A DNA stretch of 25,981 nt from a virus. Both the position numbers and the translations under genes were made by a program. The stretch is taken from positions 1 to 25,981 of IMG/VR virus record IMGVR_UViG_3300046758_000204. One strand, given 5' to 3'. Below the pieces are notes generated by a model. That model did no database searches. It worked only from the letters and a program-made list of their open reading frames with translations, and was not told where the DNA came from. This document shows positions 6,825 to 25,981 of the stretch, piece by piece. Within the stretch, counting starts at the first letter, position 1. Every line of letters starts with the position of its first letter.

Positions 6825-7160
6825 ATGCGTCCATTATGTAAATGCGGGTTAAGACCAGCGGCAATTAACTATAAAAAAGGTAACAAAGTTTACTATCGCA
6901 AGTTATGTGAAAGGTGTTCTCGTAATGGCTTAAATCACGGTGTACCTAAATGGAAACAACGAGGATACAAAAAACTTGATACGTGTGAGAAGTGCGGATT
7001 TCATAGCAAACATGAAGAACAGTTTAACGTGTTTCACATAGACGGAGACTTAGATAACTGTCGACCAGCTAATTTAAAAACCATATGTGCTAACTGTCAG
7101 CGGATTCTTCAAAAAGATGGAGTTGTTTGGAAACAGGGAGATTTAGTGCCTGATTTTTAG
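6825..7160 (+). CDS. Small HNH-like zinc-finger nuclease
   Basis: 111 aa and very basic. Cysteine pairs at 5/7, 28/31, 54/57 and 88/91 suggest two zinc sites. The C-terminal half has an HNH core: His71-x-Asp73 in FHIDGD, Asn78/Asn83 in DNCRPANL, then CANCQ, where the usual final His is Gln. Family knowledge: HNH proteins of this size act as homing or DNA-processing endonucleases in T4-like phages. Similar small proteins may be standard in marine T4-like phages, so it need not be mobile. It is the only plus-strand gene in its neighbourhood, and its last 71 bases overlap the end of the convergent kinase gene. Activity is uncertain because of the missing last His. Confidence 0.75.
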   Translation: MRPLCKCGLRPAAINYKKGNKVYYRKLCERCSRNGLNHGVPKWKQRGYKKLDTCEKCGFHSKHEEQFNVFHIDGDLDNCRPANLKTICANCQRILQKDGVVWKQGDLVPDF

Positions 7161-12069: not shown

Positions 12070-13230
12070 ATGCAAGTATTAATCATTGGCGATATAATTA
12101 TCGATAGATATATTCACGGGACTACTACTAGATTAAATCCCGAAGCACCTGTTCCTGTTGTAAACGTTACTAAAGAGTATGACACGTATGGCGGTGCATC
12201 ATTAGTATTTAAAAACTTAGAGTCGTTAGGTGTTCACGTAACACAACTTCACTACGATGACGAGAAATCAATAAAAACAAGAGTTCTGAGCGATAATCAT
12301 TATATTACACGTATAGATCAAGACACTATTGCAAATGGTGATGATATTGCAAACGATGTTGAAGATCTTGATTTATCTAATTTTGATTATGTAATTCTAA
12401 GTGATTATAATAAAGGTGTGCTTGACAATGTACAAAGAATAATCAAGCATTGTAATAAGTTTAATTGTAAAGTCATTGTTGATCCTAAACGACATGCAGA
12501 CTATTATAAAGGAGCATGGCTTGTTAAACCTAATTCTAAAGAATTTAAAGAATTAGGGTTTGATAAATGGGACGGAAATATAATCATTACTAACGGTGGA
12601 AATGCATGTACAGCAGAATTAGATAATATTAGATATGTATCTAACCCAGATAAAGTTGAAGTATCAGATGTTACAGGTGCTGGAGATTGTTTTCTTGCAG
12701 GACTTGTGTATGGCCTAACTAACGAAATGAGTTTTCAAGAAGCCTTAGATGTTGCTGTTTCGTGTTCAACAGAAAGTGTAAAACATCACGGTACATATGT
12801 TCTTATGCCTAAAGATGTTAGGAAAAAAACAGTGTTTACTAACGGGTGTTTTGATGTATTACATACTGGTCATTTAACTCTTTTAAAAGAAGCTAAAGCA
12901 CAAGGCGATTATTTAATTGTAGGTTTAAATTCTGACGAATCAATACAACAGCTAAAAGGTAACAATCGACCATTTAACAACTATGCAATACGTAGGCAAC
13001 AACTTGAATTAATCCCTTATGTTGACGAGATTATTGAATTTAGCGAACCAACTCCAATTGAATTGATTAAAGATTTACAACCTAATTTAATTGTTAAAGG
13101 CGGCGACTATAAAATAGAAGATGTAGTTGGTCATGACATTGCTCCTGTATATATTGTTCCTACAGTTGAAGGACATAGCACAACAAATATTTTAAAGGCA
13201 CAAGATGAAAATACTAATAACAGGACATAA
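12070..13230 (+). CDS. hldE: HldE/RfaE: heptose-7-phosphate kinase and heptose-1-phosphate adenylyltransferase
   Basis: 386 aa, both domains present. The N-terminal PfkB-type kinase (about 1-245) has MQVLIIGDIIIDRYIHG, the NPEAPVPVV substrate loop, GGASLVFKNLESLG, LSDYNKGVL and the anion hole/catalytic DVTGAGD (200-206). The C-terminal nucleotidyltransferase (about 250-380) has FTNGCFDVLHTGHL with the HxGH motif at 265-268, then GLNSDESI, GGDYK and EGHSTTNI. It makes D,D-heptose 1,7-bisphosphate and, after GmhB, ADP-D,D-heptose. E. coli HldE has 477 aa, so the kinase domain is compact but no motif is missing. It heads the operon, and its end overlaps hldD by 26 bases. No usable Shine-Dalgarno sequence is seen; the promoter implies a leaderless start. 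Confidence 0.93.
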   Translation: MQVLIIGDIIIDRYIHGTTTRLNPEAPVPVVNVTKEYDTYGGASLVFKNLESLGVHVTQLHYDDEKSIKTRVLSDNHYITRIDQDTIANGDDIANDVEDLDLSNFDYVILSDYNKGVLDNVQRIIKHCNKFNCKVIVDPKRHADYYKGAWLVKPNSKEFKELGFDKWDGNIIITNGGNACTAELDNIRYVSNPDKVEVSDVTGAGDCFLAGLVYGLTNEMSFQEALDVAVSCSTESVKHHGTYVLMPKDVRKKTVFTNGCFDVLHTGHLTLLKEAKAQGDYLIVGLNSDESIQQLKGNNRPFNNYAIRRQQLELIPYVDEIIEFSEPTPIELIKDLQPNLIVKGGDYKIEDVVGHDIAPVYIVPTVEGHSTTNILKAQDENTNNRT

Positions 13231-14026
13231 AGGATTTATTGGACAAAATTTAACATTTTATCTACAAGACCATTATGAGCTATCAGGGTACGAATGGCAG
13301 CCTGATTTTTTGCCGGAGGTAGAAGGATTTGATTGGGTAATACATCTTGGTGCAATATCTGCTACAACAGAAAAAGACGTAGACAAAGTTATGCTACAGA
13401 ACTACGAATTTTCTAAATGGTTATATCATCAATGTAATACTAAAGGTGTAAACTTTCAATATGCTTCGAGTGCTAGTGTATACGGAACCAACTTAGACTT
13501 TAGCGAGGATGCTCCTAAGCAACCACAGAGTCCATATGCTTATAGTAAGTATCTTTTTGATAGATGGGTTTGGCATCAACATCAACACAATATTACAGTT
13601 CAAGGACTACGTTATTTTAACGTGTTTGGACCTTTTGAAGATCACAAAGATGATATGATGAGTCCGGTAAGCAAGTTTACTAAACAAGCTAAAGAAACAG
13701 GCACTATTACATTGTTTGAAAATAGTGATAATTATAAAAGAGACTTTATATCTGTTACTGATATTTGTGAAATACATTTACAATTATTAAAAAATAAAAA
13801 GTTAGGACTGTTTAATGCTGGCACTGGTGTAGCAACAAGTTTTCAAAAAGTAGCAGAGGTTATTGCTAAAAAGTATAATGCAAAAATAAATTACATACCA
13901 ATGCCTGCTAAATTAAAAGATCAATATCAAGAATACACATGTGCTGACATTTCTAAATTAAGTACAGTAACAAGTGGAATTAACTTTGAAACAGTAGAGG
14001 AATACATTAATGGAAAAAGCAACTAG
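13205..14026 (+). CDS. hldD: HldD: ADP-glycero-manno-heptose 6-epimerase
   Basis: 273 aa, an extended short-chain dehydrogenase. Visible are the NAD(P)-binding GHKGFIG (7-13), HLGAISATTE (47-56), the YASSASVYG strand with catalytic Ser, and YAYSK (Tyr111/Lys115). HldD-specific sequence includes RYFNVFGPFEDHKDDMMSP, LFENSDNYKRDFISV, GLFNAGTG, IPMPAKLKDQYQEYTCADIS; these parallel E. coli HldD closely from memory, which separates it from UDP-sugar epimerases. It converts ADP-D,D-heptose to ADP-L,D-heptose, the donor for GT9 heptosyltransferases. E. coli HldD is about 310 aa, so this is slightly compact. It overlaps hldE by 26 bases and the cupin gene by 17. Confidence 0.92.
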   Translation: MKILITGHKGFIGQNLTFYLQDHYELSGYEWQPDFLPEVEGFDWVIHLGAISATTEKDVDKVMLQNYEFSKWLYHQCNTKGVNFQYASSASVYGTNLDFSEDAPKQPQSPYAYSKYLFDRWVWHQHQHNITVQGLRYFNVFGPFEDHKDDMMSPVSKFTKQAKETGTITLFENSDNYKRDFISVTDICEIHLQLLKNKKLGLFNAGTGVATSFQKVAEVIAKKYNAKINYIPMPAKLKDQYQEYTCADISKLSTVTSGINFETVEEYINGKSN

Positions 14027-14396
14027 ATTAACTGGTGTAGTAGAAAAAGGTTGGGGTTACGAAATGATATGGGCTACCAATGAACACTACTGTGGCAAAA
14101 TTATGGTATTTAACAGAGAAGGTGCAAAAACTAGTATGCACTTTCACAAAGAAAAAGACGAAACTTGGTTTGTGAATAGCGGCAAGTTTAAAGTTGCATA
14201 TATTGATACTAATAATTCTACATTGTATGAAAAAGAATTAGGTGAAGGTGCAACATGGCATAATCCACCTTTACAGCCACACCAATTAATTTGTCTTACC
14301 AAAGAAGGAAGTGTTACTGAAGTTAGCACTGCTGATAGTGTTGAAGACAACTACCGAATTGGCCCGGGCGATAGTCAACAAATTGAAAGTAAATAA
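14010..14396 (+). CDS. ManC/phosphomannose-isomerase-type cupin
   Basis: 128 aa, a single cupin. Motif 1 is G38-x5-H44-x-H46-x4-E51-x6-G58; the motif 2 histidine is His91 in PPLQPHQL, so a 3-His/1-Glu metal site is likely. KGWGYE at the start and EVSTADSVEDNYRIGPGD at the end resemble the C-terminal cupin of bifunctional ManC (mannose-1-phosphate guanylyltransferase/phosphomannose isomerase). Such cupins interconvert ketose and aldose phosphates. Its place inside the heptose operon makes a sugar-phosphate isomerase role plausible, perhaps on sedoheptulose 7-phosphate; this is inference. The ATG overlaps the end of hldD, with GAGG upstream. Confidence 0.8.
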   Translation: MEKATRLTGVVEKGWGYEMIWATNEHYCGKIMVFNREGAKTSMHFHKEKDETWFVNSGKFKVAYIDTNNSTLYEKELGEGATWHNPPLQPHQLICLTKEGSVTEVSTADSVEDNYRIGPGDSQQIESK

Positions 14397-15009: not shown

Positions 15010-15576
15010 ATGTATAAAGATTTATTTTCAGTACCCGTTTTACACATAAAAATTGATGAAGCTGTTGCTAATGAGATGGAATATAAAATCATTCCTCTAC
15101 TAGATCAACTTGAAAGAGAAAATGATTGTGTATCTACAGATTTTTGGGATAGAAAAATTTCAGTACACGAATTAGTTCCAGATTTTTTTCAAATTGCAAC
15201 ACAAGCGGCTCTTGATTTTCAAGAACATTCTGGTATTGAAATAGATGAAGAACTTAGAATAAAATACTGGACGCAAGATTACAAGCCAGGTGATCAGCAC
15301 GATGTACATCACCATGGTATACATGGTATAAGTGGTACTTATTGGGTAAGAGCAAATCAAGATGCTGGATCTTTTAGACTGTATAATACAAATCCGTATA
15401 GTGACTTAGTAAAGCACAAAAATAAGACAGATTATACAGTTGCATACGAAGATTTTTGGCCGGAAAAAGGATCAATGTTATTGTTTCCTTCTTACATGAA
15501 ACATTGTGTAATGCAAAGTGGCAAGGACGCTATTCGCACTTCAGTTTCATTTAACTTTGGTTGTACTCATGTATAA
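15010..15576 (+). CDS. Putative 2OG-Fe(II) oxygenase, tandem copy 2
   Basis: 188 aa, a paralogue of the preceding protein: both share the TDFWDxKIxVHExVPDF region, the KYWTQDY/RYWTQNY strand and a WPEKG-x-x-LLFPSYxKH ending. Metal/cosubstrate residues are H97-D98-x-H100, distal His165 and Arg176. The gene starts immediately after the previous stop, with AGGAG overlapping that gene's last codons, so it is coupled. It lacks a segment of about 10 residues near position 40 present in copy 1, where that copy has an Asp/Glu-rich loop. The pair arose most simply by tandem duplication and divergence. The substrate is unknown. Confidence 0.8.
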   Translation: MYKDLFSVPVLHIKIDEAVANEMEYKIIPLLDQLERENDCVSTDFWDRKISVHELVPDFFQIATQAALDFQEHSGIEIDEELRIKYWTQDYKPGDQHDVHHHGIHGISGTYWVRANQDAGSFRLYNTNPYSDLVKHKNKTDYTVAYEDFWPEKGSMLLFPSYMKHCVMQSGKDAIRTSVSFNFGCTHV

Positions 15577-16249
15577 AATTAATTGGAGTACAGAAAAAAC
15601 TGAGTCAACAGAAAAATCTGTAAAAAATAATAATATACGTTATAGTACTGATGCTCCAACACCTTACTACAATAGTACAGATAATATTGCACCTAAAGTT
15701 GTTGTAGGATTAGATCGAGATGGTGTTATTAATATTGATCGAGGTGAATATACTTACAAAGTTAAAGACTTTGAACCTATTCCTAACAGTTTAGAAGCAG
15801 TTGCTAAAATAAGACGATTAGGACATAAAATTGCAATTATTACTAATCAAGGCGGTATTGCTAAAGGATTATTTACTGAAGCTGATGTAGACAAAGTACA
15901 CGACTATATGTTTGAATTACTCGGCGAAGCAGGCTGTCTAAGCATTGACGCATTATATTATAGTGCATCAAGTGTGCGTCATGACATGTATGCTAAACCT
16001 AATGTTGGTATGTTTAAAAGATGCGAGGACGAAAATCCTTTTATAAAGTTTAAGAAAGGATATTTTGTTGGAGATAAAATATCTGATCTAAAAGCCGCAT
16101 TTAAAATTGGTGCAACACCAATACTAGTGAAAACAGGTTACGGTTTAGAAACTATAAAAGAATTAAACAAATTTTCAAATCAAAAAATAAAAAAGAAAAC
16201 TCTTATATTTGATGATTTAATGTCTGTTGCTAATTGGTTGGAAAATTGA
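15569..16249 (+). CDS. gmhB: GmhB-like D,D-heptose 1,7-bisphosphate phosphatase (HAD family)
   Basis: 226 aa from the ATG at 15569, which overlaps the previous stop by 8 bases. HAD motifs are complete: D49-R-D51-G (motif I, VVGLDRDGVIN), T92-N93 (ITNQGGIAKG, motif II), Lys143 (YAKPNVGMF, motif III) and VGDKISD (167-173, motif IV). The DRDGVIN, TNQGGIA and KPNVGM combination is that of GmhB/HisB-type phosphatases; with hldE and hldD beside it, heptose bisphosphate is the likely substrate. The Cys/His zinc loop of classical GmhB is absent: YYSASSVRHDM replaces it. A Ser/Thr/Asn-rich N-terminal extension of about 40 residues precedes motif I. Its end overlaps the convergent gene by 20 bases. Confidence 0.85.
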   Translation: MYKINWSTEKTESTEKSVKNNNIRYSTDAPTPYYNSTDNIAPKVVVGLDRDGVINIDRGEYTYKVKDFEPIPNSLEAVAKIRRLGHKIAIITNQGGIAKGLFTEADVDKVHDYMFELLGEAGCLSIDALYYSASSVRHDMYAKPNVGMFKRCEDENPFIKFKKGYFVGDKISDLKAAFKIGATPILVKTGYGLETIKELNKFSNQKIKKKTLIFDDLMSVANWLEN

Positions 16250-16847
16250 GGCCAAAGTTAGCACTAATAGATACACGTATTTCTTCTGTTTTATTATACG
16301 TTACATAATGATCTAAGTTACTTGGAAAAAATACAATATCGCCTTCTTCCATTAAAGGATTAAACAATTTACCGTTATTTCCAGGACCATAAAATCTTTC
16401 AGTTAAGTGAGTCGGAAACCAATTCAATGCACTATTGTAAAACATAAACTGTCCACAATCGGGATTGTTATCTGGTAAGTCAAGTACATATGCACAACTA
16501 ACTAAATTATTACCGCTTCCATGCGAATGCACATCTTGATGTTGATATTGACTATATTTGTTTGCCCATGCACTTCCAGTTAGATGACTAAAGTCTTCTG
16601 GTTGCATTCCTAAATTTTGAAGATATGATTGTAATGGTCCTTGTACATTTTCAAAGAATATATCCCAAGGTAACTGATTATTTTCTTCATAGGAGTTGTG
16701 TGTAGTTTCACAATTACATTCCCAATGCGAACTACTATGTTTAAATGCTGTACTGTCTTGTATAAATTCTGTAAATTTAGATTTTATATCTTTATGTTCA
16801 GGCATTTTACATTTTAAAATTGGTGCTCCAAAAATACTATCTATCAT
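16230..16847 (-). CDS. Putative 2OG-Fe(II) oxygenase, third copy
   Basis: 205 aa, more distant from the two plus-strand paralogues. The signature is H103-x-D105-x-H107-x-H109 in YQHQDVHSHG, distal His180 in FFPSNLDH and Arg191 in RVSISANFG. The N-terminal region has several Cys/His residues (HWECNCETTH) not found in the other two. It ends the minus-strand operon: its ATG at 16847 overlaps the end of the carbamoyltransferase gene by 11 bases. The stop overlaps the convergent gmhB end by 20 bases, and no terminator is visible between the two operons. Substrate unknown. Confidence 0.78.
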   Translation of the reverse strand: MIDSIFGAPILKCKMPEHKDIKSKFTEFIQDSTAFKHSSSHWECNCETTHNSYEENNQLPWDIFFENVQGPLQSYLQNLGMQPEDFSHLTGSAWANKYSQYQHQDVHSHGSGNNLVSCAYVLDLPDNNPDCGQFMFYNSALNWFPTHLTERFYGPGNNGKLFNPLMEEGDIVFFPSNLDHYVTYNKTEEIRVSISANFGLNFPTN

Positions 16848-18639
16848 TTTTAATAGTTACTTTCACATTATGTTCTGGTAAGTACAAATATTCAATATCA
16901 CTGTTAGCAAGTGTTCTAAACGCATCATCTAATGTTTCTACTAAAGGTTCTCCGCCTAGATTAAATGACGTATTGAATATAATTGGAACACCAGTATGTT
17001 TATAAAAGTCATTAATTAAATCATAATAAACTTCATTTTGTTCTCTAGTTACTGTTTGTATACGACATGTACCATCGATATGAATAATACTTGGAATTTT
17101 TTCTGCTACACCTTCTTGACAATTCATTGCATACATCATGTGCGGAGAATCTTTCATACCACGCATGTCAAACCATTCTTCTGCATGTTCTGCTAATATT
17201 GTGCCAGCAAATGGACGAAAATATTCTCGACGTTTTACTAAGTTTACATGATCTTTTCCGTTAGGATCTGTTGGGTCATAAAGTATACTTCTGTTACCTA
17301 ATGCTCGTGGACCTGATTCTGAGCGTCCTTGGAACAACGATACAATATTTCTATCAGTAATTAATTTGACAATATCTTTGTTTTCTGCTGTAGTAACATC
17401 AGCATTATACTGTAAGGCTAACATTTCAACATCGTCTCTCGAATATGTTTTTTCAGGACCTAAATATAAACTTTCGCCAAACGGTCTTGTATTAGTATTT
17501 TTAGTAATAGAGTGCCAGCCCATCATAGCCGCGCCAATAGCAGTGCCAGCATCACTTGAAATAGGTTCAACGTATAAATTAATACCTTCGTCTTTTAACT
17601 CTTTAAGATAATGATAGTTTGCAACACAGTTTAAGCCATAGCCGCCACTTACTACAACATTCTTATGACCTGTCATTTCTACTGCTTTGCGTATTAAACG
17701 TAATACTTCATCTTGACTTTGTGTTTGTACAGCATATGCCATATCTCTTCTACTTTGCAATTTAGTTAAGTTGTCAGACTTTTCAGGTGTAACTAATTCG
17801 TTGTAACGACCTTCATTAACTATAGCTCCATTTGGATATGTAGGAATAATAAGATTCTTGTCAGATGTACGCCAGTCTCCTCCAGCATCAGTATATAATG
17901 GCGGAATTTTATCATTTGGCTTGCCATACGGAAACAACCCCATAGTTTTTCCGGCTTCAATATATTCAAACCCGCAATAACCTGTTACTGCTTCGTATGT
18001 CTTAACTATTCCGGCAGCATCATCAATAATAGCTTCATGTGTTTCACCGTCTTCCATAAACCATTCACTTGACATGTTAGGGTCTCTCATTGATACGTAA
18101 GGACCATTACCACCCAAGTGTTTGTATATTGTTTTAAAGTTATCAGGATATGCACATGTAAAAATTGATTCAAGTTCCCAAACAATGTCGTCATTACCGT
18201 TAACGTTCATTGGAATAAATGTTCCAGCACCGTCAACAATTACTGACACTGCTTCATCAAACCCACTACGATAAAATGCACACCCAGCGTGTAACTTATG
18301 ATGAATTTTTGATAAGTCAACAACTTGCGGATGATTCCATAAGTCTGTACCAGGTCCTCTTTCAATTAATCCTAATTTACGTGCCATACCAGTATATACA
18401 TTATCACCAGTAAAGTCAACGGTTGCGGCAGTTTCCTCTAAAGTTTGAGTATGTGCAACAAATATATAATCAAGTTTATCTGTATATTCTAAAATTTTTA
18501 CCATACTAGCAAAAGGACCACCATCATATTTTTGTCTACTTAGGCGTTCTTCTTCTACAGCAAAGACAATTTCTCCGTCTTTTAGTAAGCATACGCCGCC
18601 ATTATGGCCGCGTGTTATTCCGGCTATCCACTGACTCAT
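16837..18639 (-). CDS. O-carbamoyltransferase (NodU/CmcH/WapO type)
   Basis: 600 aa, full length for the family. The N-terminal Kae1-like domain shows GITRGHNGGVCLL (His12), AVEEERLSRQKYDGG, HHKLHAG (His113, 114, 117) and SVIVDGAG; a second part has VSGGYGLNCVAN (330-341) and SSDAGTAIGAA (361-371). The C-terminal domain has FQGRSESGPRALGNRS (436-451), FRPFAGTIL and NTSFNLGGEP (556-565). These enzymes activate carbamoyl phosphate with ATP and carbamoylate a sugar hydroxyl. WapO of Pseudomonas aeruginosa, of this family, is implicated in 7-O-carbamoylation of core heptose, which makes a heptose acceptor likely here. A strong AGGAGG site precedes the ATG, which overlaps the GT9 stop as ATGA. Confidence 0.9.
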   Translation of the reverse strand: MSQWIAGITRGHNGGVCLLKDGEIVFAVEEERLSRQKYDGGPFASMVKILEYTDKLDYIFVAHTQTLEETAATVDFTGDNVYTGMARKLGLIERGPGTDLWNHPQVVDLSKIHHKLHAGCAFYRSGFDEAVSVIVDGAGTFIPMNVNGNDDIVWELESIFTCAYPDNFKTIYKHLGGNGPYVSMRDPNMSSEWFMEDGETHEAIIDDAAGIVKTYEAVTGYCGFEYIEAGKTMGLFPYGKPNDKIPPLYTDAGGDWRTSDKNLIIPTYPNGAIVNEGRYNELVTPEKSDNLTKLQSRRDMAYAVQTQSQDEVLRLIRKAVEMTGHKNVVVSGGYGLNCVANYHYLKELKDEGINLYVEPISSDAGTAIGAAMMGWHSITKNTNTRPFGESLYLGPEKTYSRDDVEMLALQYNADVTTAENKDIVKLITDRNIVSLFQGRSESGPRALGNRSILYDPTDPNGKDHVNLVKRREYFRPFAGTILAEHAEEWFDMRGMKDSPHMMYAMNCQEGVAEKIPSIIHIDGTCRIQTVTREQNEVYYDLINDFYKHTGVPIIFNTSFNLGGEPLVETLDDAFRTLANSDIEYLYLPEHNVKVTIKNDR

Positions 18640-19604
18640 TTATTACCTCCTACTTGCAATAACGGTTTAGTGTTTTTTCTTCCTAATTTTTTTCTAATTG
18701 AATCAACTATTTGTTTAGTTTGTGTTTTGTTTAAATCCATACATTTATCATTTATTCTATCAGGTTCTTCTTCATTAGTAATTCTAATTGGACTATATAC
18801 TCTCATATCTTCACCTATGTCAAAAATTTCAACATTAGGATCATTTATATACGATGTATTGACCGGGTACGTGCTTCCAATCACTACAGTTGATTGTGTA
18901 TCAAGTGCTTTAGCAATATGTTGTCCTACGCTATCACATCCTAAAAAATGATCTGCGGCATTAATAACACCTGCCCAAATACGTATGTCTGGTATTTGTG
19001 GCTGTGCTATAGGTATGTTATCATCTTTTGAATTTTGCATATTTAGTTGTATTTCGCTCATTAAAATAACAGCATAATCTTGCTTTAGTTGATTTGCAAT
19101 TTCTAACATATCTTCAGATCTAAAACTTCTCGAAGTTACATCAATTAAATCTTCTTCAGTTGTGCGTCCAAAAGGTTGTATTACTACTACTTTGTCTTTG
19201 CCTGTTGTTTCTTTAACTTCTTTAATTACATTTTCGCCTTGTGCTTTTTCAATCTTATTAAGATATACTGAAGGAACTGATACATCACGTAATCCTTTGT
19301 TGTTAATTTCTATATCAAATGCCTGTGCTAAACTGCATTTTTGATTATAGTATTCCCACACTCTGTACGGCTCAGGTGAGACACAATTTCTGTCTTTTAT
19401 AAAAGATTCAAATAGCCCTTTGTGCCATGTATCATACGCACGTCGATGTAGTGTTGGATGTCCTTTATAAAAATCTGTGCCTGCTTCACAAACAATAATA
19501 AAGTCATCGTTTGGATTTTCTTTTTCGTATGCTTCGAATGCAGGTATCGAAGTTATAACACGGCCAGCGCCGCCATTGATAAAGAAAGCTGTTGATCTTG
19601 TCAT
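18636..19604 (-). CDS. GT9 (ADP-heptose:LPS heptosyltransferase-like) glycosyltransferase
   Basis: 322 aa from the ATG at 19604. GT-B fold features: an N-terminal acceptor-side motif FFINGGAGRVITSIPAF (7-23), a linker strand VVVIQPFG (139-146), and the donor-binding FLGCDSVGQHIAKAL (220-234) followed by STVVIGST, matching the D-S-x-x-x-H-x-A-x-A-L pattern of WaaC/WaaF/RfaF. With hldE, hldD and gmhB nearby, ADP-L,D-heptose is the probable donor. The acceptor (LPS core, phage glycan or other) is unknown. A GTG start 12 bases upstream is possible, but the AAAGGG site suits the ATG better. It is first in an operon with the carbamoyltransferase and an oxygenase. Confidence 0.85.
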   Translation of the reverse strand: MTRSTAFFINGGAGRVITSIPAFEAYEKENPNDDFIIVCEAGTDFYKGHPTLHRRAYDTWHKGLFESFIKDRNCVSPEPYRVWEYYNQKCSLAQAFDIEINNKGLRDVSVPSVYLNKIEKAQGENVIKEVKETTGKDKVVVIQPFGRTTEEDLIDVTSRSFRSEDMLEIANQLKQDYAVILMSEIQLNMQNSKDDNIPIAQPQIPDIRIWAGVINAADHFLGCDSVGQHIAKALDTQSTVVIGSTYPVNTSYINDPNVEIFDIGEDMRVYSPIRITNEEEPDRINDKCMDLNKTQTKQIVDSIRKKLGRKNTKPLLQVGGNK

Positions 19605-19618
19605 AGAATAATACACCC

Positions 19619-19731: not shown

Positions 19732-20562
19732 TTATAACTCAGTTGGTGTTTTGTCTATTACATCACAGAATGGAAAACATGAATCTACAAATATTAATGG
19801 AACATTTGCTTCTTGCATTGCTGTCGGGAAGTCACGTAGTAATTGTCTATACACAACAAGTTTGTCCCACTTATCTTTGTCAATATCTTTCATAATTAAA
19901 AACAATGTGTCAGTAGACGCAAGTCTTTCATCACGTTCTGTACGTATTTCATCCCAAGTATTAGCTACACCAATTATGTCTTCATTTGTATGCTTATACA
20001 AATCTAACTCATTAGTTTCAAAGTTCCACTTACTAAGTTTTTCGTCATATAAGTCATCTGGATGAATAGGATATTCATATTCAAATGGCATATAGCCTTC
20101 TGGTACTGGTATTTTTTTAGTACCTGGAGTTTCTACCCATTCTTCTTTGTCTTTATAATTGTCATGATAGTCAGACATAACTTCTGCATCTAAAGGATGT
20201 TCTCTAGCATCTAACTTAACAATTACCATTTCTTCAGGATCTGGCATGTATTGCCAGTTGTCAGTTGACTCTAGAACTTCAAATTCTCTTTGTATATGTC
20301 GAATAAGGTTTGTTTCTTTTTCTACCCAAAGATATAAAAATTTAGGACCTTTATATACAGTATCAATAGTTTCAGTTTCTTCACCATCCATATAATTGTC
20401 TTTTGGACATTCATAAGAATAGTTTACTTCAACCCATTCAGTTCCGTGTTCGTCGGTCATCTCAATGTCTCTATAGTCAATTACTTCACTATCTAGTTCA
20501 TCTCGATCGTCGTCGATGTTTGGATTTACTTCGTCAATTACGTTTTCTTCTTCACTCATCAT
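19732..20562 (-). CDS. Tail assembly chaperone-like protein with long acidic region
   Basis: 276 aa and strongly acidic. Residues about 202-246 carry a pattern typical of phage tail assembly chaperones (Phage_tail_APC-like): NTWDEIRTERDERLASTD, then a W-D-K-L-V-V-Y-R-Q-L-L-R-D-F-P segment. Members of that family help fold or attach tail fibres. The first about 200 residues are unlike the short classical chaperones: Asp/Glu/Tyr-rich with WVEVNYSYECPKDNY and a beta-rich middle. The ATG at 20562 directly follows the stop of the Cys-rich gene, whose last codons supply the GGAG site; an ATG one codon later is equally usable. Its position last in the fibre operon fits a chaperone for the fibre or the Cys-rich protein. 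Confidence 0.7.
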   Translation of the reverse strand: MMSEEENVIDEVNPNIDDDRDELDSEVIDYRDIEMTDEHGTEWVEVNYSYECPKDNYMDGEETETIDTVYKGPKFLYLWVEKETNLIRHIQREFEVLESTDNWQYMPDPEEMVIVKLDAREHPLDAEVMSDYHDNYKDKEEWVETPGTKKIPVPEGYMPFEYEYPIHPDDLYDEKLSKWNFETNELDLYKHTNEDIIGVANTWDEIRTERDERLASTDTLFLIMKDIDKDKWDKLVVYRQLLRDFPTAMQEANVPLIFVDSCFPFCDVIDKTPTEL

Positions 20563-21426
20563 TTAACTCCAAGTTATTCTCATCATACCAGGATTACCAG
20601 GAGTACCTCTACAGTAAGATAGTGATCCGCCGCAGTACGATTTCATTGAATTTGATCCACCGCCTGATACTTGTCTAAATCCTCTACAACAGTTAGTACA
20701 ACCACAGTAAACAACTGAATTTTCAATATGATAAGTGTGTCCGTTACTAATTCCCCAAGATGCTGAAACTGATGTGTGTCTTGAGTTACAATCACAGTTT
20801 CCTCTTGATTTAATAAATGCTGGTTCGTCACCTAAGTCTACCCAGTCAAACTTTTGACAGAAACATAATCCGTTATTACACATGCCGTCTGTTCTGTTAC
20901 CTTGGTTATTACATCTGCAACTACAGTAAAGGTTATATCCGCCTCTACCACCTGTCATACACGTACAGCATAAACATCTTCCACTAAATCGTGTCATACA
21001 CCCTCTTGGTGCATCACAACATGCAGTATAGCAACCACATCCGTTGTTAGTAGTTCCGTTGCCGCCTGCGCCAATACACCAGCAATATATACAACCTGGT
21101 GCAAAACATCCGGCCTGTCTATATAGTGTTCTTCGACCGTAGTACCCACTCATTGCTCCACAACTAACCATATCGCACCAGCAGCCTTGACAACAGTGAC
21201 CTGCGCCAGCGCCGCCGCCGCTCCACATTTCAAATTGTACTGTTTGCGCACAATCAGGTACTGTCCAAGTACCTGTTCGCTGACAGTGTGATCTACATCT
21301 GTGTGGACCACAGCATACTAAACATGTGTTAAAGCAGGTACATGTACCACCTGGGGATCTTCCAGCAGTTCGCTGACAAGTCCCGTCTGGGTATTTCATA
21401 CCCGTACTAATTAGCTCAGTTGCCAT
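20563..21426 (-). CDS. Cysteine- and glycine-rich probable tail-fibre adhesin
   Basis: 287 aa with 41 cysteines (14%), many as CC, CxC or CxxC, and many glycines. It begins MATELISTGMKYPDGTCQRT and contains a WSGGGAGAGHCC stretch; apart from the cysteines this recalls the glycine-rich domains of T4-like tail-fibre tip proteins. No signal peptide or membrane segment is seen. Cysteines start at residue 17 and stop about 15 residues before the end. The frame is genuine: GGGAG site, 1-base gap to the fibre gene upstream, and a coupled gene downstream. Likely a virion surface protein, possibly disulfide-stabilised or metal-binding after lysis. I know no characterised homologue. Confidence 0.75.
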   Translation of the reverse strand: MATELISTGMKYPDGTCQRTAGRSPGGTCTCFNTCLVCCGPHRCRSHCQRTGTWTVPDCAQTVQFEMWSGGGAGAGHCCQGCWCDMVSCGAMSGYYGRRTLYRQAGCFAPGCIYCWCIGAGGNGTTNNGCGCYTACCDAPRGCMTRFSGRCLCCTCMTGGRGGYNLYCSCRCNNQGNRTDGMCNNGLCFCQKFDWVDLGDEPAFIKSRGNCDCNSRHTSVSASWGISNGHTYHIENSVVYCGCTNCCRGFRQVSGGGSNSMKSYCGGSLSYCRGTPGNPGMMRITWS

Positions 21427-21427
21427 A

Positions 21428-23650
21428 TTATGCGTCTCCCTTTAATGTATTTATTTCTTGTTTTAATTCTTTAATTGCTTCAACTAATAGCGGTATAATT
21501 CTTTCGTATTGTACCGTCATATAGTTTTCACCTGATGCACTATACTCTTCAAATATACCTGCTTCTTTGTCTTCATTTTGTGCAATGTCAAATGGTGCAG
21601 GTAACACTACTTCTGGTAGTACTGCTTGTACTTCTTGTGCTAGTAATCCTGCTTGTAATTCATCACCTTCAAATCCGTTTTCTTTAGCAAGCTCGTTTAC
21701 TTTGTAAATTACGCCATTTAAACTACAAACTTTTTCTAATGCGTTTTCAATATTACCTTGAACATCTTTTAAACGTGCATCTGAATAGTTTGAAACGATA
21801 TTACCTGTTGCACGTATTTGTCCAGCACTGTTTGGATCTGCTGTGTTAACACCAATACAACGTATACTTGTCATATTCTTAGATGCGTCAATAACATCTG
21901 AGCCGCCCATTCTGAATGCTCCAACGTTTATGTTACAGCCTACGTCATCTAAAATTTGGAACCAAACTTTATTGCTGTCTTCTGGCTCTCTAAAGTCTAA
22001 CCCTTCAGGAGTTGCTCTAATTTCTGCATCAACACCTGCGTCACTTGATCCGTTAAATGTAATACTTGGATTAGCAGTACCGTATAAATTAATAAGGCCT
22101 CGGTTAATATTTAGTATACCATTCATAGTATGTGTATCACTTGTAGCATTACCTAGTGTACCATTACCATTATAACTAAAGGTGCCGCTTGCACTTAGAG
22201 ATGTAAACGATCCACTTGATCCTGATATTGACATATTACTAATTGTACCACTGCCTGGGCTAAGTGTTAACGAACTAGCAGGTGAAATAGTAACTGTTCC
22301 TGTACCGCTTGGTGATAGTGTTACAGTTTTATTTGCTGGACTTAGTGTAACAGTATTGTTAGCGTCTAATGTTGTAAATTGTCCAGAAGCTCTTGATACG
22401 TTACCAATTGAACCTACAAAGCCGCCTCCTGAATAAACACGTTTAGCAATACTTGCACCACCTTCTACTCTTAAAATTCCGTTGTCACCGTTTGCACTTG
22501 ACGAATCTGTAGTACCTGTAATATCAACAACACCACTTGCTGTAACTGTAGTTGCTGTTACTGTGTTACTACTTACGTTACCAATTGGTCCTTGGAAACT
22601 TCCTGCATAAATTGCACCACTTGCACCAATGCCACCAGTTACAACTAGTGTACCTGTTGTAGTATTAGTTGATGCTGTGTTTGCAGTAAACGATGTTGCA
22701 CCACTTGATGTTAAAGATGTAAATGCACCAGTATTAGCGTTACCATTACCAACTGGTCCGTTAAGTGATCCTGCATAAATTGATCCGCCTACGCCAATAC
22801 CGCCAGTTACAACAACAGCGCCACTGCCTGTTCCTGAACTTGCAGTTGCAGAACTAAGTGTTGTATTACCACTTGCATTAAGTGTAGTAAATCTACCTGT
22901 ACCTGCTGTAGTAGCGCCAATGTTCATACCATCAATATTACCTGCTGAGTCTGAACTAATAGTTACCGTATCAGCTGATCCAATTACTACAGGCCCTTCA
23001 GGATCAATAGTTACTGAACTAGTTGCTCCTGTTGGTGATATATTAATTGACTGTCCTGCGGCAGTAAATGTTAAGTCTCCTGGAAATGCTGTTGGTTTAC
23101 CAGCTTCACCAAGTGTAATTGTTCCTGTTGATGATGCTAAAACTAAATCACCGGCCGGTCTAATAGTTGCAGTACCGCCTGGCTGGACGGCAACGGAGGA
23201 TTGAGGACTAATGTCTACTATACCTGTCCCGGTTGGTTTAATTTCTATGTTTTCATCTACTGGATTCAATTCAACTTTGCCATCTGCATTTAGCAAGTCG
23301 TTTGTTGTTAACGGAAGTTCAAATACTGTTGTACCTGCTAACGCACTTGTTAGTACGTAGTTTGCGCCATCTGATGTTAATTGATATGTTGAGTTTGTTG
23401 GAATATCTACTGATACTCCAAGTGTTACACCGTTACCTGTAATTTGACCAGCGGAGGTAGTCAGTGTAATCATACCGTCAGTTGCATTATAAAATGTTTG
23501 TCTACTGCCTGGAAAAAACACTGGACTTACCATTGTAACTTCGTACCCAGCTGTTCCAGTTAAACTAATTATGCCTCCAGTGAAAGCGTAAGTAAAATCA
23601 GTTTCTCCTGTTACTTCCAGTGTCTGCGGTGCTGTATTATAACGTGCCAT
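21428..23650 (-). CDS. Tail fibre protein with C-terminal S74 intramolecular chaperone
   Basis: 740 aa. Residues 1-110 form a likely attachment part (MARYNTAPQTLEVTGETDF). Residues about 130-500 are a long Ser/Thr/Gly/Val-rich beta shaft with short repeats (TVTISP, TLSPSGT) and three longer copies of a GxLxVTGGIGxxGxIYAGxxxGPIGN module. Residues about 620-740 are a Peptidase_S74 chaperone: the cleavage-site Ser623 in NYSDARLKD, LNGVIYKVNELAKENG, LLAQEVQAVLPEVV, YMTVQYERIIPLLVEAIKEL and a terminal coiled-coil-like helix. Such domains trimerise the fibre, then cut themselves off at the Ser. AGGGGA precedes the ATG. Confidence 0.88.
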   Translation of the reverse strand: MARYNTAPQTLEVTGETDFTYAFTGGIISLTGTAGYEVTMVSPVFFPGSRQTFYNATDGMITLTTSAGQITGNGVTLGVSVDIPTNSTYQLTSDGANYVLTSALAGTTVFELPLTTNDLLNADGKVELNPVDENIEIKPTGTGIVDISPQSSVAVQPGGTATIRPAGDLVLASSTGTITLGEAGKPTAFPGDLTFTAAGQSINISPTGATSSVTIDPEGPVVIGSADTVTISSDSAGNIDGMNIGATTAGTGRFTTLNASGNTTLSSATASSGTGSGAVVVTGGIGVGGSIYAGSLNGPVGNGNANTGAFTSLTSSGATSFTANTASTNTTTGTLVVTGGIGASGAIYAGSFQGPIGNVSSNTVTATTVTASGVVDITGTTDSSSANGDNGILRVEGGASIAKRVYSGGGFVGSIGNVSRASGQFTTLDANNTVTLSPANKTVTLSPSGTGTVTISPASSLTLSPGSGTISNMSISGSSGSFTSLSASGTFSYNGNGTLGNATSDTHTMNGILNINRGLINLYGTANPSITFNGSSDAGVDAEIRATPEGLDFREPEDSNKVWFQILDDVGCNINVGAFRMGGSDVIDASKNMTSIRCIGVNTADPNSAGQIRATGNIVSNYSDARLKDVQGNIENALEKVCSLNGVIYKVNELAKENGFEGDELQAGLLAQEVQAVLPEVVLPAPFDIAQNEDKEAGIFEEYSASGENYMTVQYERIIPLLVEAIKELKQEINTLKGDA
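22400..22858 (-). repeat. Three diverged copies of a fibre-shaft module
   Basis: Encodes fibre residues about 265-301, 325-357 and 386-417. Each has a T/S-G-x-x-V-V-T-G-G-I-G segment, then IYAG (YSGG in the third) and GP(V/I)GN or GSIGN. Spacing is about 60 residues. Copies one and two are close; the third is more diverged. Confidence 0.75.
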
Positions 23651-23669: not shown

Positions 23670-23990
23670 TTATGTTGTCGAAGTTTCGATGCCGTATACT
23701 GTAATACCAACGTCATTAGAGTTTACATTTGCTACTATATTTAGTCCGCCTTGCATTACTAAGCCAGTACGTTCAAACACACCGTTTGGAATAATAACTG
23801 TATTCCATTCAATCCATTCTTCCGCAGTTGGCGTTGCTGTTGTTGCCATTGCTAGTTTCATCGAAATTGATGTTGTATTTCTGTTTGTAATTGATACATT
23901 CGCTACGCTATACGTTCCTACCGGTACTGTGTAAACAGTGGTATCTGTATTAGCTGTTAGATCCTGTACTCCTAATCTTCCTGTTGCCAT
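23670..23990 (-). CDS. Small beta-rich virion protein
   Basis: 106 aa, no named family recognised. The sequence alternates hydrophobic and polar residues (TVYTVPVGTYSVANVSITNR, GLNIVANVNSNDVGITVYGIE), typical of a beta-sandwich, with no cysteine or membrane segment. Similar small proteins occur in tail-fibre operons of marine T4-like phages, to my knowledge without known function. The ATG at 23990 has GGAG 10 bases upstream, formed at the end of the previous gene 15 bases away. A fibre connector or decoration protein is a reasonable guess. Confidence 0.75.
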   Translation of the reverse strand: MATGRLGVQDLTANTDTTVYTVPVGTYSVANVSITNRNTTSISMKLAMATTATPTAEEWIEWNTVIIPNGVFERTGLVMQGGLNIVANVNSNDVGITVYGIETSTT

Positions 23991-24005: not shown

Positions 24006-25981
24006 TTATCTGCTTAAGAAGTATCCAAGTGCTACGGGTGCTCCGTCAATACCACCTGTAAAGTTCATTTTCGCTTTAATATTTAGCTGTCCGCCGCTTG
24101 TAGTTGTTATTTCATCGTTTGCAATGAATACAACACCCGCTGTTAGTGTGTTAACGTTCAGGCTACTTTGTCCACCACCAATCTGTGCGGTAATGTACGA
24201 TTTAATTGCTCTTTGTGTTGGAACAATATTATCACTGTTTTCAGTAAAGAATGGATCTGTACTAAACTGTGTAATAACTGCCGAGCCAATACCAACAGCA
24301 ATACCACCAAGTTGCAATGACTGCAATCCTGCTAAGTTAAATGCGTCAGCATCCAATGTCGCAGTACCAGTGGACTGCTGAACACCAAACAAACCGCCAA
24401 CGTTAAAGTTACCATCTTGGTCAGTACTTGTAAAGAATACTCGTCCGCCACTTGAACTAAATTGCTGAGCCGCAATACTAGCAGTTGTAATGTCAACAAA
24501 TGGATAGTTTGTTTTAGCTTGGTTACCAGTACCAATATACAAGAAGTCATGTCCTGTTAGACGTACTTGCGAGTATTTGTTAGTTGTAGTAATTAATGTT
24601 CCATCTTTTGGAGCATTTAATACTGTTAATCCTGGACTAACTTGGAATGTTGCTGTATAACTGCCTGCTTGTCCAATAACATTACTAATTGTAACTAATT
24701 TATAGTAACTACCGTCAATGCCAGCAAATTCAACATTTGATCCAGGTTCTGGTAATTCAAACAACCCTTTTACAGCAATGAATGTGCTTGGCTGATACAA
24801 GTCTGCGTTACCGTCGCCTGCTAGTTCTGCTGTTGCTGTTGTATAACCAGTTCCTCTATTAGTAAATGTTGGGTTACTTAACGCACCACTTCTAATTCTA
24901 GGATTAATTGCCGCATCAATTGTTGAATTTGGATCTGTAATAGTTACTACTGGACCTGCTTCAAATGTTACAGTTCCAATATTATCTGTTGAAACAGTTG
25001 TAATATCAAAACTTGCGCCACCTGATGTCAAACTTACTTCAATGTCATCTCCTGACAATGCGCTAATATAGTATAGTGTTTCACTATCTAAACCAATAGT
25101 TTCTAAAGTAGTGCCATCAAATGTAATTGGTTGTCCAACATACATGTTTGTTGTATCACTTAAAGTAATAGTGTTCGATGCTGTTGTACTTGCAACAGTT
25201 CCTATTGGGTAACCGTTTCCTGGTTCTCTTAAGGTTAGTGTTGTAATAGATCCATCTGCAATATATACTCTACCAATTGGCGTTGCGCCAGTTTTAATAT
25301 ATGCCGTTGCATTGTTTGCGCCATTTGATGCACCTATCCAAAGCGGATGTCTATTAGGACTACCAAATGCAAATGCTTTGTAAGTTTCTGATCCACTTTC
25401 AAATCTAGGCTCCCATAATAAACCATCTTGCGATGATGCCCAGTCACTAGTACCTGCTCTTGATGCAAGGAATAATCCTTGACCATATTCGATACTAGTC
25501 CAATCTGATGTGTACATGTTTGCTAATGTTGTACCTTCTGTTGCCCATGTTGCGCCTTCGTCAACACTTACTGCATAGTCTCCACTAGCACTAATTGCAA
25601 CAAATCTACCGTTACCATATGTTATATCTAACCAATCAGTTGAACTACCTGGTAAACTACCTCCAGCGATCCAAACAATACCGTTAGTTGATGTTGCTGT
25701 AAATCCATTATCATTCAATGCACAAAACTTTGTAGCGCCATATGCTAGTGCAACAAAGTTGCCTGCCGCTGGTGTTGTAATATCTCTTGAAACCCAAGTA
25801 GATCCATCAGTTGACGTTGCCGCACCTCCAGTGCCGCCAGCGCCACCAACTACAGAATAAACTCCGTTACCAAATGCAATGTCAGTATATACTGAACTTG
25901 GTAATGCTGTACCTGCTGTCCAAACTGCATTATCAGCTGCCGATAATGGCAAGTAAGCATTATTAGTTGACCCTACAGCTA
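24006..25981 (-). CDS. Tail-fibre-like structural protein with Asp-box repeats (partial, N-terminus off window)
   Basis: The frame is open to the right edge; a TTG at 25952 is not accepted as the start because reading continues upstream (AVGSTNNAYL before it). About 657 residues are visible. The right part carries four Asp-box (BNR-like, SxDxGxxW) motifs about 40 residues apart: STDGSTW, STNGIVW, SVDEGATW and SQDGLLW, each followed by a YGNGxFVA-type strand, suggesting beta-propeller blades like sialidases or binding propellers. The C-terminal part (from about 470) has FFTSTDQDGNFNVGGLFGVQ, LGGIAVGIGSAVITQFSTD and SDNIVPTQRAIKSYI. Role: probably a host-binding fibre or baseplate appendage. 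Enzymatic activity is not evident. Confidence 0.8.
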   Translation of the reverse strand, partial: AVGSTNNAYLPLSAADNAVWTAGTALPSSVYTDIAFGNGVYSVVGGAGGTGGAATSTDGSTWVSRDITTPAAGNFVALAYGATKFCALNDNGFTATSTNGIVWIAGGSLPGSSTDWLDITYGNGRFVAISASGDYAVSVDEGATWATEGTTLANMYTSDWTSIEYGQGLFLASRAGTSDWASSQDGLLWEPRFESGSETYKAFAFGSPNRHPLWIGASNGANNATAYIKTGATPIGRVYIADGSITTLTLREPGNGYPIGTVASTTASNTITLSDTTNMYVGQPITFDGTTLETIGLDSETLYYISALSGDDIEVSLTSGGASFDITTVSTDNIGTVTFEAGPVVTITDPNSTIDAAINPRIRSGALSNPTFTNRGTGYTTATAELAGDGNADLYQPSTFIAVKGLFELPEPGSNVEFAGIDGSYYKLVTISNVIGQAGSYTATFQVSPGLTVLNAPKDGTLITTTNKYSQVRLTGHDFLYIGTGNQAKTNYPFVDITTASIAAQQFSSSGGRVFFTSTDQDGNFNVGGLFGVQQSTGTATLDADAFNLAGLQSLQLGGIAVGIGSAVITQFSTDPFFTENSDNIVPTQRAIKSYITAQIGGGQSSLNVNTLTAGVVFIANDEITTTSGGQLNIKAKMNFTGGIDGAPVALGYFLSR

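What the first reader, a model, noticed from the sequence alone, without database searches (positions are those of the whole stretch)
20563..21426. Phage structural-operon protein with 41 cysteines
14% cysteine with many CC/CxC/CxxC pairs is exceptional for a tail protein made in the reducing cytoplasm. It may fold around metals, or form disulfides after lysis to give a very stable adhesin. The glycine-rich stretch hints at a modified fibre-tip domain. The gene is tightly coupled on both sides, so it is not a spurious frame.
Basis: seen in the sequence. Interest (0 to 1): 0.78.

Follow-up and report, generated by a model that had tools for sequence, protein, structure and literature searches.

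The report
Cysteine-rich phage tail tip beside glycosyltransferase
A marine virus of bacteria makes a tail-tip protein in which every seventh building block is cysteine, and because unrelated cysteine-packed tail proteins in other viruses sit beside the same sugar-attaching enzyme, the cysteines may be anchor points for sugars, which would be an unknown way of coating a virus.

Summary
In detail: a 287-aa gene (20563-21426, minus strand) encodes 41 cysteines (14.3%) under purifying selection. It belongs to phrog_4205, an unannotated marine T4-like phage family (6-15% Cys in more than 300 full-length relatives). The AlphaFold model matches the receptor-binding tail fibre gp24 of cyanophage Pam3 (TNF-like plus glycine-rich domain, Z 14.9). 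As in Pam3, a tail assembly chaperone gene follows. So 'fibre tip' is well supported.

Disulfide and metal readings gain no support: Cys counts show no even/odd bias, Cys positions are not gained or lost in pairs, and few are invariant. The new clue is a neighbour, a GT9 (heptosyltransferase)-like gene (18636-19616, phrog_8954). It follows the family in 144 of 145 loci with room. In phages without the family, the same enzyme sits beside unrelated Cys-rich tail proteins: beta-roll/S74 fibres, an N4-like tail tip, others. The window also encodes HldE, HldD and GmhB homologues (ADP-heptose synthesis). Syn9, a cyanophage without the enzyme, has the same fold with 2 Cys.

Best explanation (about 50%): the cysteines are acceptors for S-linked sugar, probably heptose, added by the adjacent enzyme. 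No chemistry has been shown. Some diverged enzyme homologues have no Cys-rich neighbour.

The parts
20563..21426 (-). Cys/Gly-rich tail-fibre tip protein, 287 aa, 41 Cys (phrog_4205; Pam3 gp24-like fold)
19732..20562 (-). Phage tail assembly chaperone-like protein, partner of the tip (PF16778 above cut-off)
   Evidence: 32.2 bits, cut-off 26.6; a homologue follows the tip in 152/152 family loci with room
18636..19616 (-). GT9 / heptosyltransferase-like protein (phrog_8954, T4-GC302), proposed modifier of the cysteines
   Evidence: linkage
16837..18639 (-). Nol/NodU-like carbamoyltransferase; may carbamoylate the sugar (inferred)
12070..13230 (+). HldE-like bifunctional heptose-7-phosphate kinase / heptose-1-phosphate adenylyltransferase
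   Evidence: NF008454 E 1.5e-80, below the equivalog cut-off
13205..14026 (+). HldD-like ADP-heptose 6-epimerase
   Evidence: TIGR02197 E 7.5e-75, 252 bits against cut-off 274.6
15569..16249 (+). GmhB-like heptose-1,7-bisphosphate 7-phosphatase (HAD-IIIA)
   Evidence: NF006506 E 9.8e-39; HAD-IIIA above cut-off
21428..23650 (-). Tail fibre with C-terminal S74 chaperone domain, directly upstream of the tip gene; only 3 Cys
23670..23990 (-). 106-aa fibre-associated protein, conserved in the cassette
24006..25952 (-). Large tail fibre protein (phrog_9851)

Best explanation
The gene encodes the receptor-binding tip of a tail fibre of a marine T4-like phage, built like gp24 of cyanophage Pam3 (TNF-like beta-sandwich plus glycine-rich bundle, probably trimeric) and folded with the help of the chaperone encoded next. 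Its 41 cysteines are best explained as acceptor sites for a post-translational modification made in the reducing cytoplasm: S-linked glycosylation by the adjacent GT9-like enzyme (18636-19616), probably with heptose from ADP-heptose that the phage helps to make (HldE, HldD, GmhB), perhaps further carbamoylated. Shown by computation: the gene, the fold match, the chaperone pairing, selection on Cys, the GT9-like sequence, the ADP-heptose genes, and the linkage of the enzyme to unrelated Cys-rich tail proteins. Inferred: trimer, presence in virions, Cys as acceptor, heptose as the sugar, effect on receptor binding or stability.
For: Fibre tip: AF2 model pLDDT 73.6, pTM 0.77; best PDB match Pam3 fibre gp24, Z 14.9 over 203 residues, Foldseek E 1.2e-4; chaperone homologue downstream in 152/152 loci, matching Pam3 gp24-gp25 (PMC9608196). 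Cys as substrate: (1) the GT9-like gene follows the family within 2.6 kb in 144/145 loci with room, and every named record with the family has it. (2) In phages with the enzyme but no hit to the family by the standard search, its neighbours include Cys-rich tail or unassigned proteins of other kinds: AG-345-O18 758 aa/73 Cys and 290 aa/31 Cys, AG-345-P14 282 aa/26 Cys, Vibrio N4-like SBP1 tail tip 925 aa/41 Cys (a relative, L275, 760 aa/58 Cys), beta-roll S74 fibres of 1032-1291 aa with 57-73 Cys, a 167-aa protein with 20 Cys. (3) In six of eight records scanned piece by piece the most Cys-rich ORF of 150 aa or more lies within 2 kb of this enzyme (13 bp in SBP1 and G033; top two of 165 in P-SSM2); in O18 two of the top three do, in HJ05 the third-ranked lies 16 bp away. 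(4) The enzyme family is GT9-like: the SBP1 member passes PF01075 (25.4 against 22), hhalign to E. coli WaaF/WaaC E 1.2e-4 over the donor-binding domain, top PDB matches LPS heptosyltransferase 1, E 0.1. (5) ADP-heptose genes occur in the window and in five cyanophages but not in SBP1 or HJ05. (6) Syn9 lacks the enzyme and its PF21722 proteins have 2 and 7 Cys. (7) No even/odd bias (167/170) and no paired Cys gain/loss.
Against: No chemistry or virion proteomics was available. The window's own enzyme scores below the PF01075 cut-off (16.9 against 22). Of 80 diverged enzyme loci, 12 with 2.5 kb or more upstream show no Cys-rich neighbour within 5 kb, and extended stretches of some still show none (L355, L356, L359), so the link is strong but not universal. 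With all filters off and no composition correction, the 'unrelated' proteins score against the family profile (down to E 8e-13); I read this as shared Cys/Gly composition, but distant homology of some is not excluded. Some Cys are family-wide invariant (C117, C132, C156 in 93/93), which fits structure as well. One relative pair gains two Cys together (L002, L003). Known GT9 protein glycosyltransferases act on hydroxyl groups (PMC8498110).
Confidence: 0.5

Rival explanations
1. The cysteines form a dense disulfide network after lysis in oxic seawater and make a very stable adhesin. The GT9-like enzyme is unrelated or sugars other residues.
For: Disulfide networks exist in virions: phage Milano structural proteins average 2.1% Cys with many intra- and interchain disulfides (PMC10811340). 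Strong selection on Cys. Nine Cys positions are present in 86 or more of 93 members.
Against: Cys counts are as often odd as even (167/170); no significant paired gain or loss among 378 column pairs after allowing for multiple tests; Cys content is high in several unrelated fibre types that share only the enzyme neighbour.
Confidence: 0.24
2. The cysteines bind metal (Zn, Fe or Cu) and the tip is a metalloprotein, for example to use iron-uptake receptors as in the Ferrojan Horse idea.
For: Marine phage tail fibres are proposed to carry iron through HxH motifs (PMC11705849).
Against: Cys number (17-43) and positions vary widely and few are invariant; CC and CxxC spacing are at chance in this protein; several unrelated folds with different Cys patterns. 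Metal does not account for the linkage to a GT9-like gene.
Confidence: 0.09
3. The linkage is hitch-hiking: a tail-tip plus sugar-modification cassette moves as a unit, the enzyme acts on host or phage glycans or on Ser/Thr of the tip, and Cys richness has another cause.
For: Tip, chaperone, GT9-like and carbamoyltransferase genes form one conserved cassette; some enzyme homologues lack a Cys-rich neighbour.
Against: In SBP1 and HJ05 (not T4-like) the cassette reduces to the enzyme beside one Cys-rich tail protein 13-16 bp away. The neighbours are unrelated, so shared ancestry of the tip cannot explain Cys richness.
Confidence: 0.16
4. Spurious frame or compositional artefact.
For: None found.
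Against: Purifying selection, synonymous Cys codon changes, a large conserved family and a confident fold.
Confidence: 0.01

Closest known systems
Cyanophage Pam3 tail fibre gp24 with chaperone gp25 (PDB 7YPX, 7YFW; PMC9608196)
   Same: TNF-like beta-sandwich plus glycine-rich receptor-binding bundle, fold match Z 14.9; chaperone gene directly downstream; myophage.
   Different: The paper mentions neither cysteine nor disulfide. The chaperone model gave no significant match to gp25. Some relatives have three tandem paralogues with one chaperone.
Salmonella phage S16 gp38-type polyglycine adhesin
   Same: Glycine-rich tip for receptor recognition (as described in PMC9608196).
   Different: Different companion domain; not among the matches listed for this model.
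BAHT autotransporter heptosyltransferases (TibC, Aah) that O-heptosylate TibA and AIDA-I (PMC8498110)
   Same: Heptosyltransferase encoded with the adhesin it modifies, many sites per adhesin.
   Different: Acceptors are hydroxyl side chains, not Cys; bacterial surface proteins, not phage tails; sequence relation to phrog_8954 not tested.
Glycocins (sublancin, glycocin F): natural S-linked glycosylation of Cys (own knowledge; sublancin paper PMC6391423 seen)
   Same: Sugar on a Cys thiol.
   Different: Small bacteriocins with one or two sugars and (own knowledge) GT2 enzymes; here dozens of Cys on a virion protein and a GT9-like enzyme.
Agrobacterium phage Milano disulfide-rich virion (PMC10811340)
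   Same: Virion proteins enriched in Cys.
   Different: 2.1% Cys with defined disulfides in sheath, tube and baseplate, against 6-15% here in tips only.

Membership tests
phrog_4205 (phage family, function unknown) | Match to the family profile over its length | tested here: met
   E 4.8e-5, residues 37-287 against 34-285/287; 93/93 members of alignment A4 match
Pfam PF21722 Gly_rich_2 | Score above the curated cut-off (24.3 bits) | tested here: not met
   Window protein 14.7 bits; several relatives pass, 25-34.5 bits
Pam3 gp24-type fibre tip | TNF-like plus glycine-rich fold | tested here: met
   VIA Z 14.9, 203 aligned, 3.5 A; Foldseek E 1.2e-4, on a model of pLDDT 73.6
Pam3 gp24-type fibre tip | Tail fibre assembly chaperone encoded next to it | tested here: met
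   PF16778 32.2 bits, cut-off 26.6; 152/152 loci with room
Pam3 gp24-type fibre tip | Chaperone with the gp25/Tfa fold | tested here: inconclusive
   Model pLDDT 85.1 but no significant PDB match
Pam3 gp24-type fibre tip | Trimer, present in virions, binds receptor | not testable with these tools
   -
GT9 glycosyltransferase (gene 18636-19616) | PF01075 curated cut-off (22 bits) | tested here: inconclusive
   Window protein 16.9, SBP1 homologue 25.4; hhalign to WaaF/WaaC E 1.2e-4
GT9 glycosyltransferase (gene 18636-19616) | Conserved donor-site region (D...H) near the C-terminus | tested here: met
   Asp and His invariant in 12/12, aligned to the WaaF/WaaC region
BAHT heptosyltransferases | Iron-binding Cys motif, dodecamer, autotransporter substrate | not tested
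   No BAHT alignment was built
S-glycosylated proteins | Sugar on the Cys thiol | not testable with these tools
   -

The most novel reading that the evidence does not exclude
Phages carry a dedicated system that S-glycosylates (probably S-heptosylates) dozens of cysteines on receptor-binding tail tips. A GT9-like transferase, with phage-made or host-made ADP-heptose, acts on several unrelated tip folds that have each become rich in Cys.
Probability: 0.45. Interest if true: 0.88.

Novelty: new variant of a known kind. Interest (0 to 1): 0.74.

Why it matters
It would explain two puzzles of marine T4-like phages together: why some carry ADP-heptose and carbamoyltransferase genes, and why their tail tips are packed with Cys. 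It would give a GT9 enzyme a thiol acceptor and a protein substrate on a virion, and a way for phages to put sugars on the surface that meets the host. One mass-spectrometry experiment on an isolated phage can decide it.

Tried and rejected
tblastn of the window protein against named phages found nothing, and a relative at E up to 10 gave only weak fragments; family profiles and diverged relatives were needed. Profile searches of PDB sequences with the tip families found nothing, nor did a Cys-poor relative. Zinc-type spacing: rejected. Paired Cys evolution: none significant. Prokaryote genome scan: 4 loci; three (L188-L190) are marine MAG contigs that I take for phage sequence, the fourth (L191) a Cys-poor Gly_rich_2 protein. 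Three paralogues as three universal orthologous groups: t1, t2 and t3 are not monophyletic over the whole tree, so only lineage-wise groups. Literature: no report found of phage Cys glycosylation or of this family (open-access papers only). Virion proteomics of S-SM1 is published (PMC3037559), but whether S-SM1 has this family was not checked. Cys-poor Gly_rich_2 phage proteins by tblastn: no match.

Full report
WHAT IS THERE. The ORF at 20563-21426 lies on the minus strand: 287 aa, 41 Cys, 47 Gly, abutting the downstream gene and 1 nt from the upstream S74 fibre gene. It is under purifying selection (dN/dS 0.08-0.13), keeps 41/41 Cys in close relatives while 8-9 Cys codons change synonymously, and keeps Cys better than other residues in relatives at 62-65% identity. 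The window is a 25,981-base virus record with T4-like structural genes (sheath match).

FAMILY. It matches phrog_4205 over most of its length. Scans of viral contigs gave 361 distinct relatives, of which the full-length ones have 17-43 Cys, 6-15%. Named carriers are Kyanoviridae cyanophages: S-SSM7, S-SSM6a, Sf-FS3, S-CAM1, S-CAM3, P-SSM2, P-SSM5, plus marine single-cell viral contigs. A scan of prokaryote species genomes gave three marine MAG contigs with the family, which I take for phage sequence, and one Cys-poor Gly_rich_2 protein. Pfam Gly_rich_2 is matched by 58/93 members, though the window protein is below its cut-off.

FOLD. AlphaFold2 with 93 family sequences gave pLDDT 73.6, pTM 0.77. 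The best solved match is the fibre gp24 of cyanophage Pam3 (Z 14.9 over 203 residues), then a Bxb1 tail-tip protein (Z 10.5) and ALK/LTK glycine-rich domains (Z about 8). Predicted viral structures give S-CAM3 and P-SSM2 relatives, many phage glycine-rich proteins and Syn9 Gp38. Pam3 gp24 has a TNF-like and a glycine-rich receptor-binding domain and needs chaperone gp25 (PMC9608196). Only 8 of 41 Cys lie in predicted strands; most lie in the connecting Gly-rich segments. The residues before about 26 are predicted poorly.

GENE ORDER. The cassette is fibre, 106-aa protein, structural protein, tip gene(s), chaperone, phrog_8954, carbamoyltransferase. In 58/58 loci with enough context a family tip gene is present: a single copy as in the window, or three tandem copies before one chaperone. 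Another clade alternates tip, chaperone, tip, chaperone. The chaperone follows in 152/152 loci with room. Three tips with one chaperone suggests heterotrimers in those phages and a homotrimer here (inference).

WHY CYSTEINES? The family offers no sign of dedicated pairs: 167 even against 170 odd counts, and no significant co-gain or co-loss among 378 column pairs. Three Cys are invariant in 93/93 members and about six more nearly so; the rest shift between clades.

THE CLUE. The phrog_8954 gene (window 18636-19616) is GT9-like. Its SBP1 homologue passes PF01075, the family aligns with E. coli WaaF/WaaC over the donor-binding region, and its best PDB sequence matches are LPS heptosyltransferases, at a weak E of 0.1. 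Every named record with the tip family has it, and 144 of 145 contig loci with room have it within 2.6 kb; the exception has 2,648 bases of room. Records with the enzyme but no family hit by standard search carry other Cys-rich proteins beside it: AG-345-O18 (758 aa, 73 Cys; 290 aa, 31 Cys), AG-345-P14 (282 aa, 26 Cys), Vibrio N4-like SBP1 (tail tip, 41 Cys), Aeromonas HJ05 (559 aa, 23 Cys). A scan for diverged homologues added beta-roll-repeat fibres ending in an S74 domain (57-73 Cys), an SBP1-like tip with Cys-rich repeats (58 Cys) and a 167-aa protein with 20 Cys. In records read piece by piece the most Cys-rich ORF of 150 aa or more lies within 2 kb of the enzyme in six of eight (P-SSM2, SBP1, G030, AG-345-P14, G033, G029); in AG-345-O18 two of the top three do, and in HJ05 it ranks third, 16 bp from the enzyme, behind a probable zinc-finger ORF and an antisense ORF. 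The neighbours share Cys richness and tail location rather than a recognisable fold, which points to Cys as what the enzyme needs.

SUGAR SUPPLY. The window has HldE, HldD and GmhB homologues (all below the strict equivalog cut-offs, as divergent phage enzymes may be). Five cyanophages carry HldE and HldD homologues while SBP1 and HJ05 carry neither. From own knowledge, marine picocyanobacterial LPS lacks heptose whereas Vibrio and Aeromonas make ADP-heptose, so this is the pattern expected if the enzyme uses ADP-heptose. GmhA was not identified in the window.

CONTROL. Cyanophage Syn9 has no phrog_8954 match but three Gly_rich_2 matches; its gp38 (same superfamily, found by fold) has 2 Cys in 266 aa and gp39 has 7 in 392. 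A Chitinophagales MAG relative has 2 Cys in 236. The fold does not require Cys.

LIMITS. Of 80 diverged enzyme loci, 58 have a Cys-rich protein (at least 10 Cys and 4%) within 5 kb; 10 of the rest are cut off within 2.5 kb upstream, 12 are not. Of those 12, one longer stretch (L354) shows beta-roll fibres with 3.4-3.6% Cys, two (L296, L312/L358) end in fragments of the L311-like fibre that are themselves only 1.6-1.7% Cys, and several show nothing (L355, L356, L359, L329). The loci are not independent of each other. The Cys-rich neighbours that I call unrelated do score against the tip profile when composition correction is switched off, so distant kinship of some cannot be excluded, although the beta-roll/S74 and N4-like tail-tip proteins carry other recognised domains. 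The chemistry is entirely inferred. The Sullivan 2010 cyanophage proteome (PMC3037559) does not decide it.

VERDICT. Fibre tip: about 85%. Cysteines modified by the adjacent enzyme: about 50%. Disulfide network: about a quarter. Metal: under a tenth.

Noticed in passing
L089, L211-L269 and named cyanophages L016-L018, L187: The tip gene occurs as exactly three tandem paralogues with one chaperone in all multi-copy loci of the cyanophage-type clade that were used for the tree (42 sets); positions group by order within lineages but not across the whole tree. Suggests heterotrimeric tips.
   Followed up: partly
L012, L020, L022, L025, L129, L142, L157: Another clade alternates tip-chaperone-tip-chaperone; L157 has tip, two chaperone-like genes, two tips, chaperone.
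   Followed up: partly
window 15010-15576 and 16230-16847: 2OG-Fe(II) oxygenase genes (PF13759) inside the sugar cassette; substrates unknown, could act on tail proteins or sugars. The gene between 14397 and 15009 looks similar by eye.
   Followed up: no
window 14010-14396: Cupin/WbuC-like protein next to the ADP-heptose genes; homologue in P-SSM2 and S-CAM1 cassettes.
   Followed up: no
L311, L313: Fibres of beta-roll 'NIAIGxxAL' repeats ending in an S74 domain with a Cys in most repeats (57 and 73 Cys), two to three genes from a GT9-like gene.
   Followed up: partly
L354-L356, L359: Large phage glycosylation islands (several glycosyltransferase-, sulfotransferase- and carbamoyltransferase-like ORFs by eye) with phrog_8954 homologues but weak or no Cys enrichment nearby; L355 has fibres with RCC1-like WGWG repeats.
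   Followed up: partly
L391 (AG-345-O18, record 20075-20713): A third Cys-rich protein (213 aa, 23 Cys) 5 kb from the GT9-like gene.
   Followed up: no
window 6825-7160: Small plus-strand ORF with an HNH-like Cys/His pattern between structural genes.
   Followed up: no
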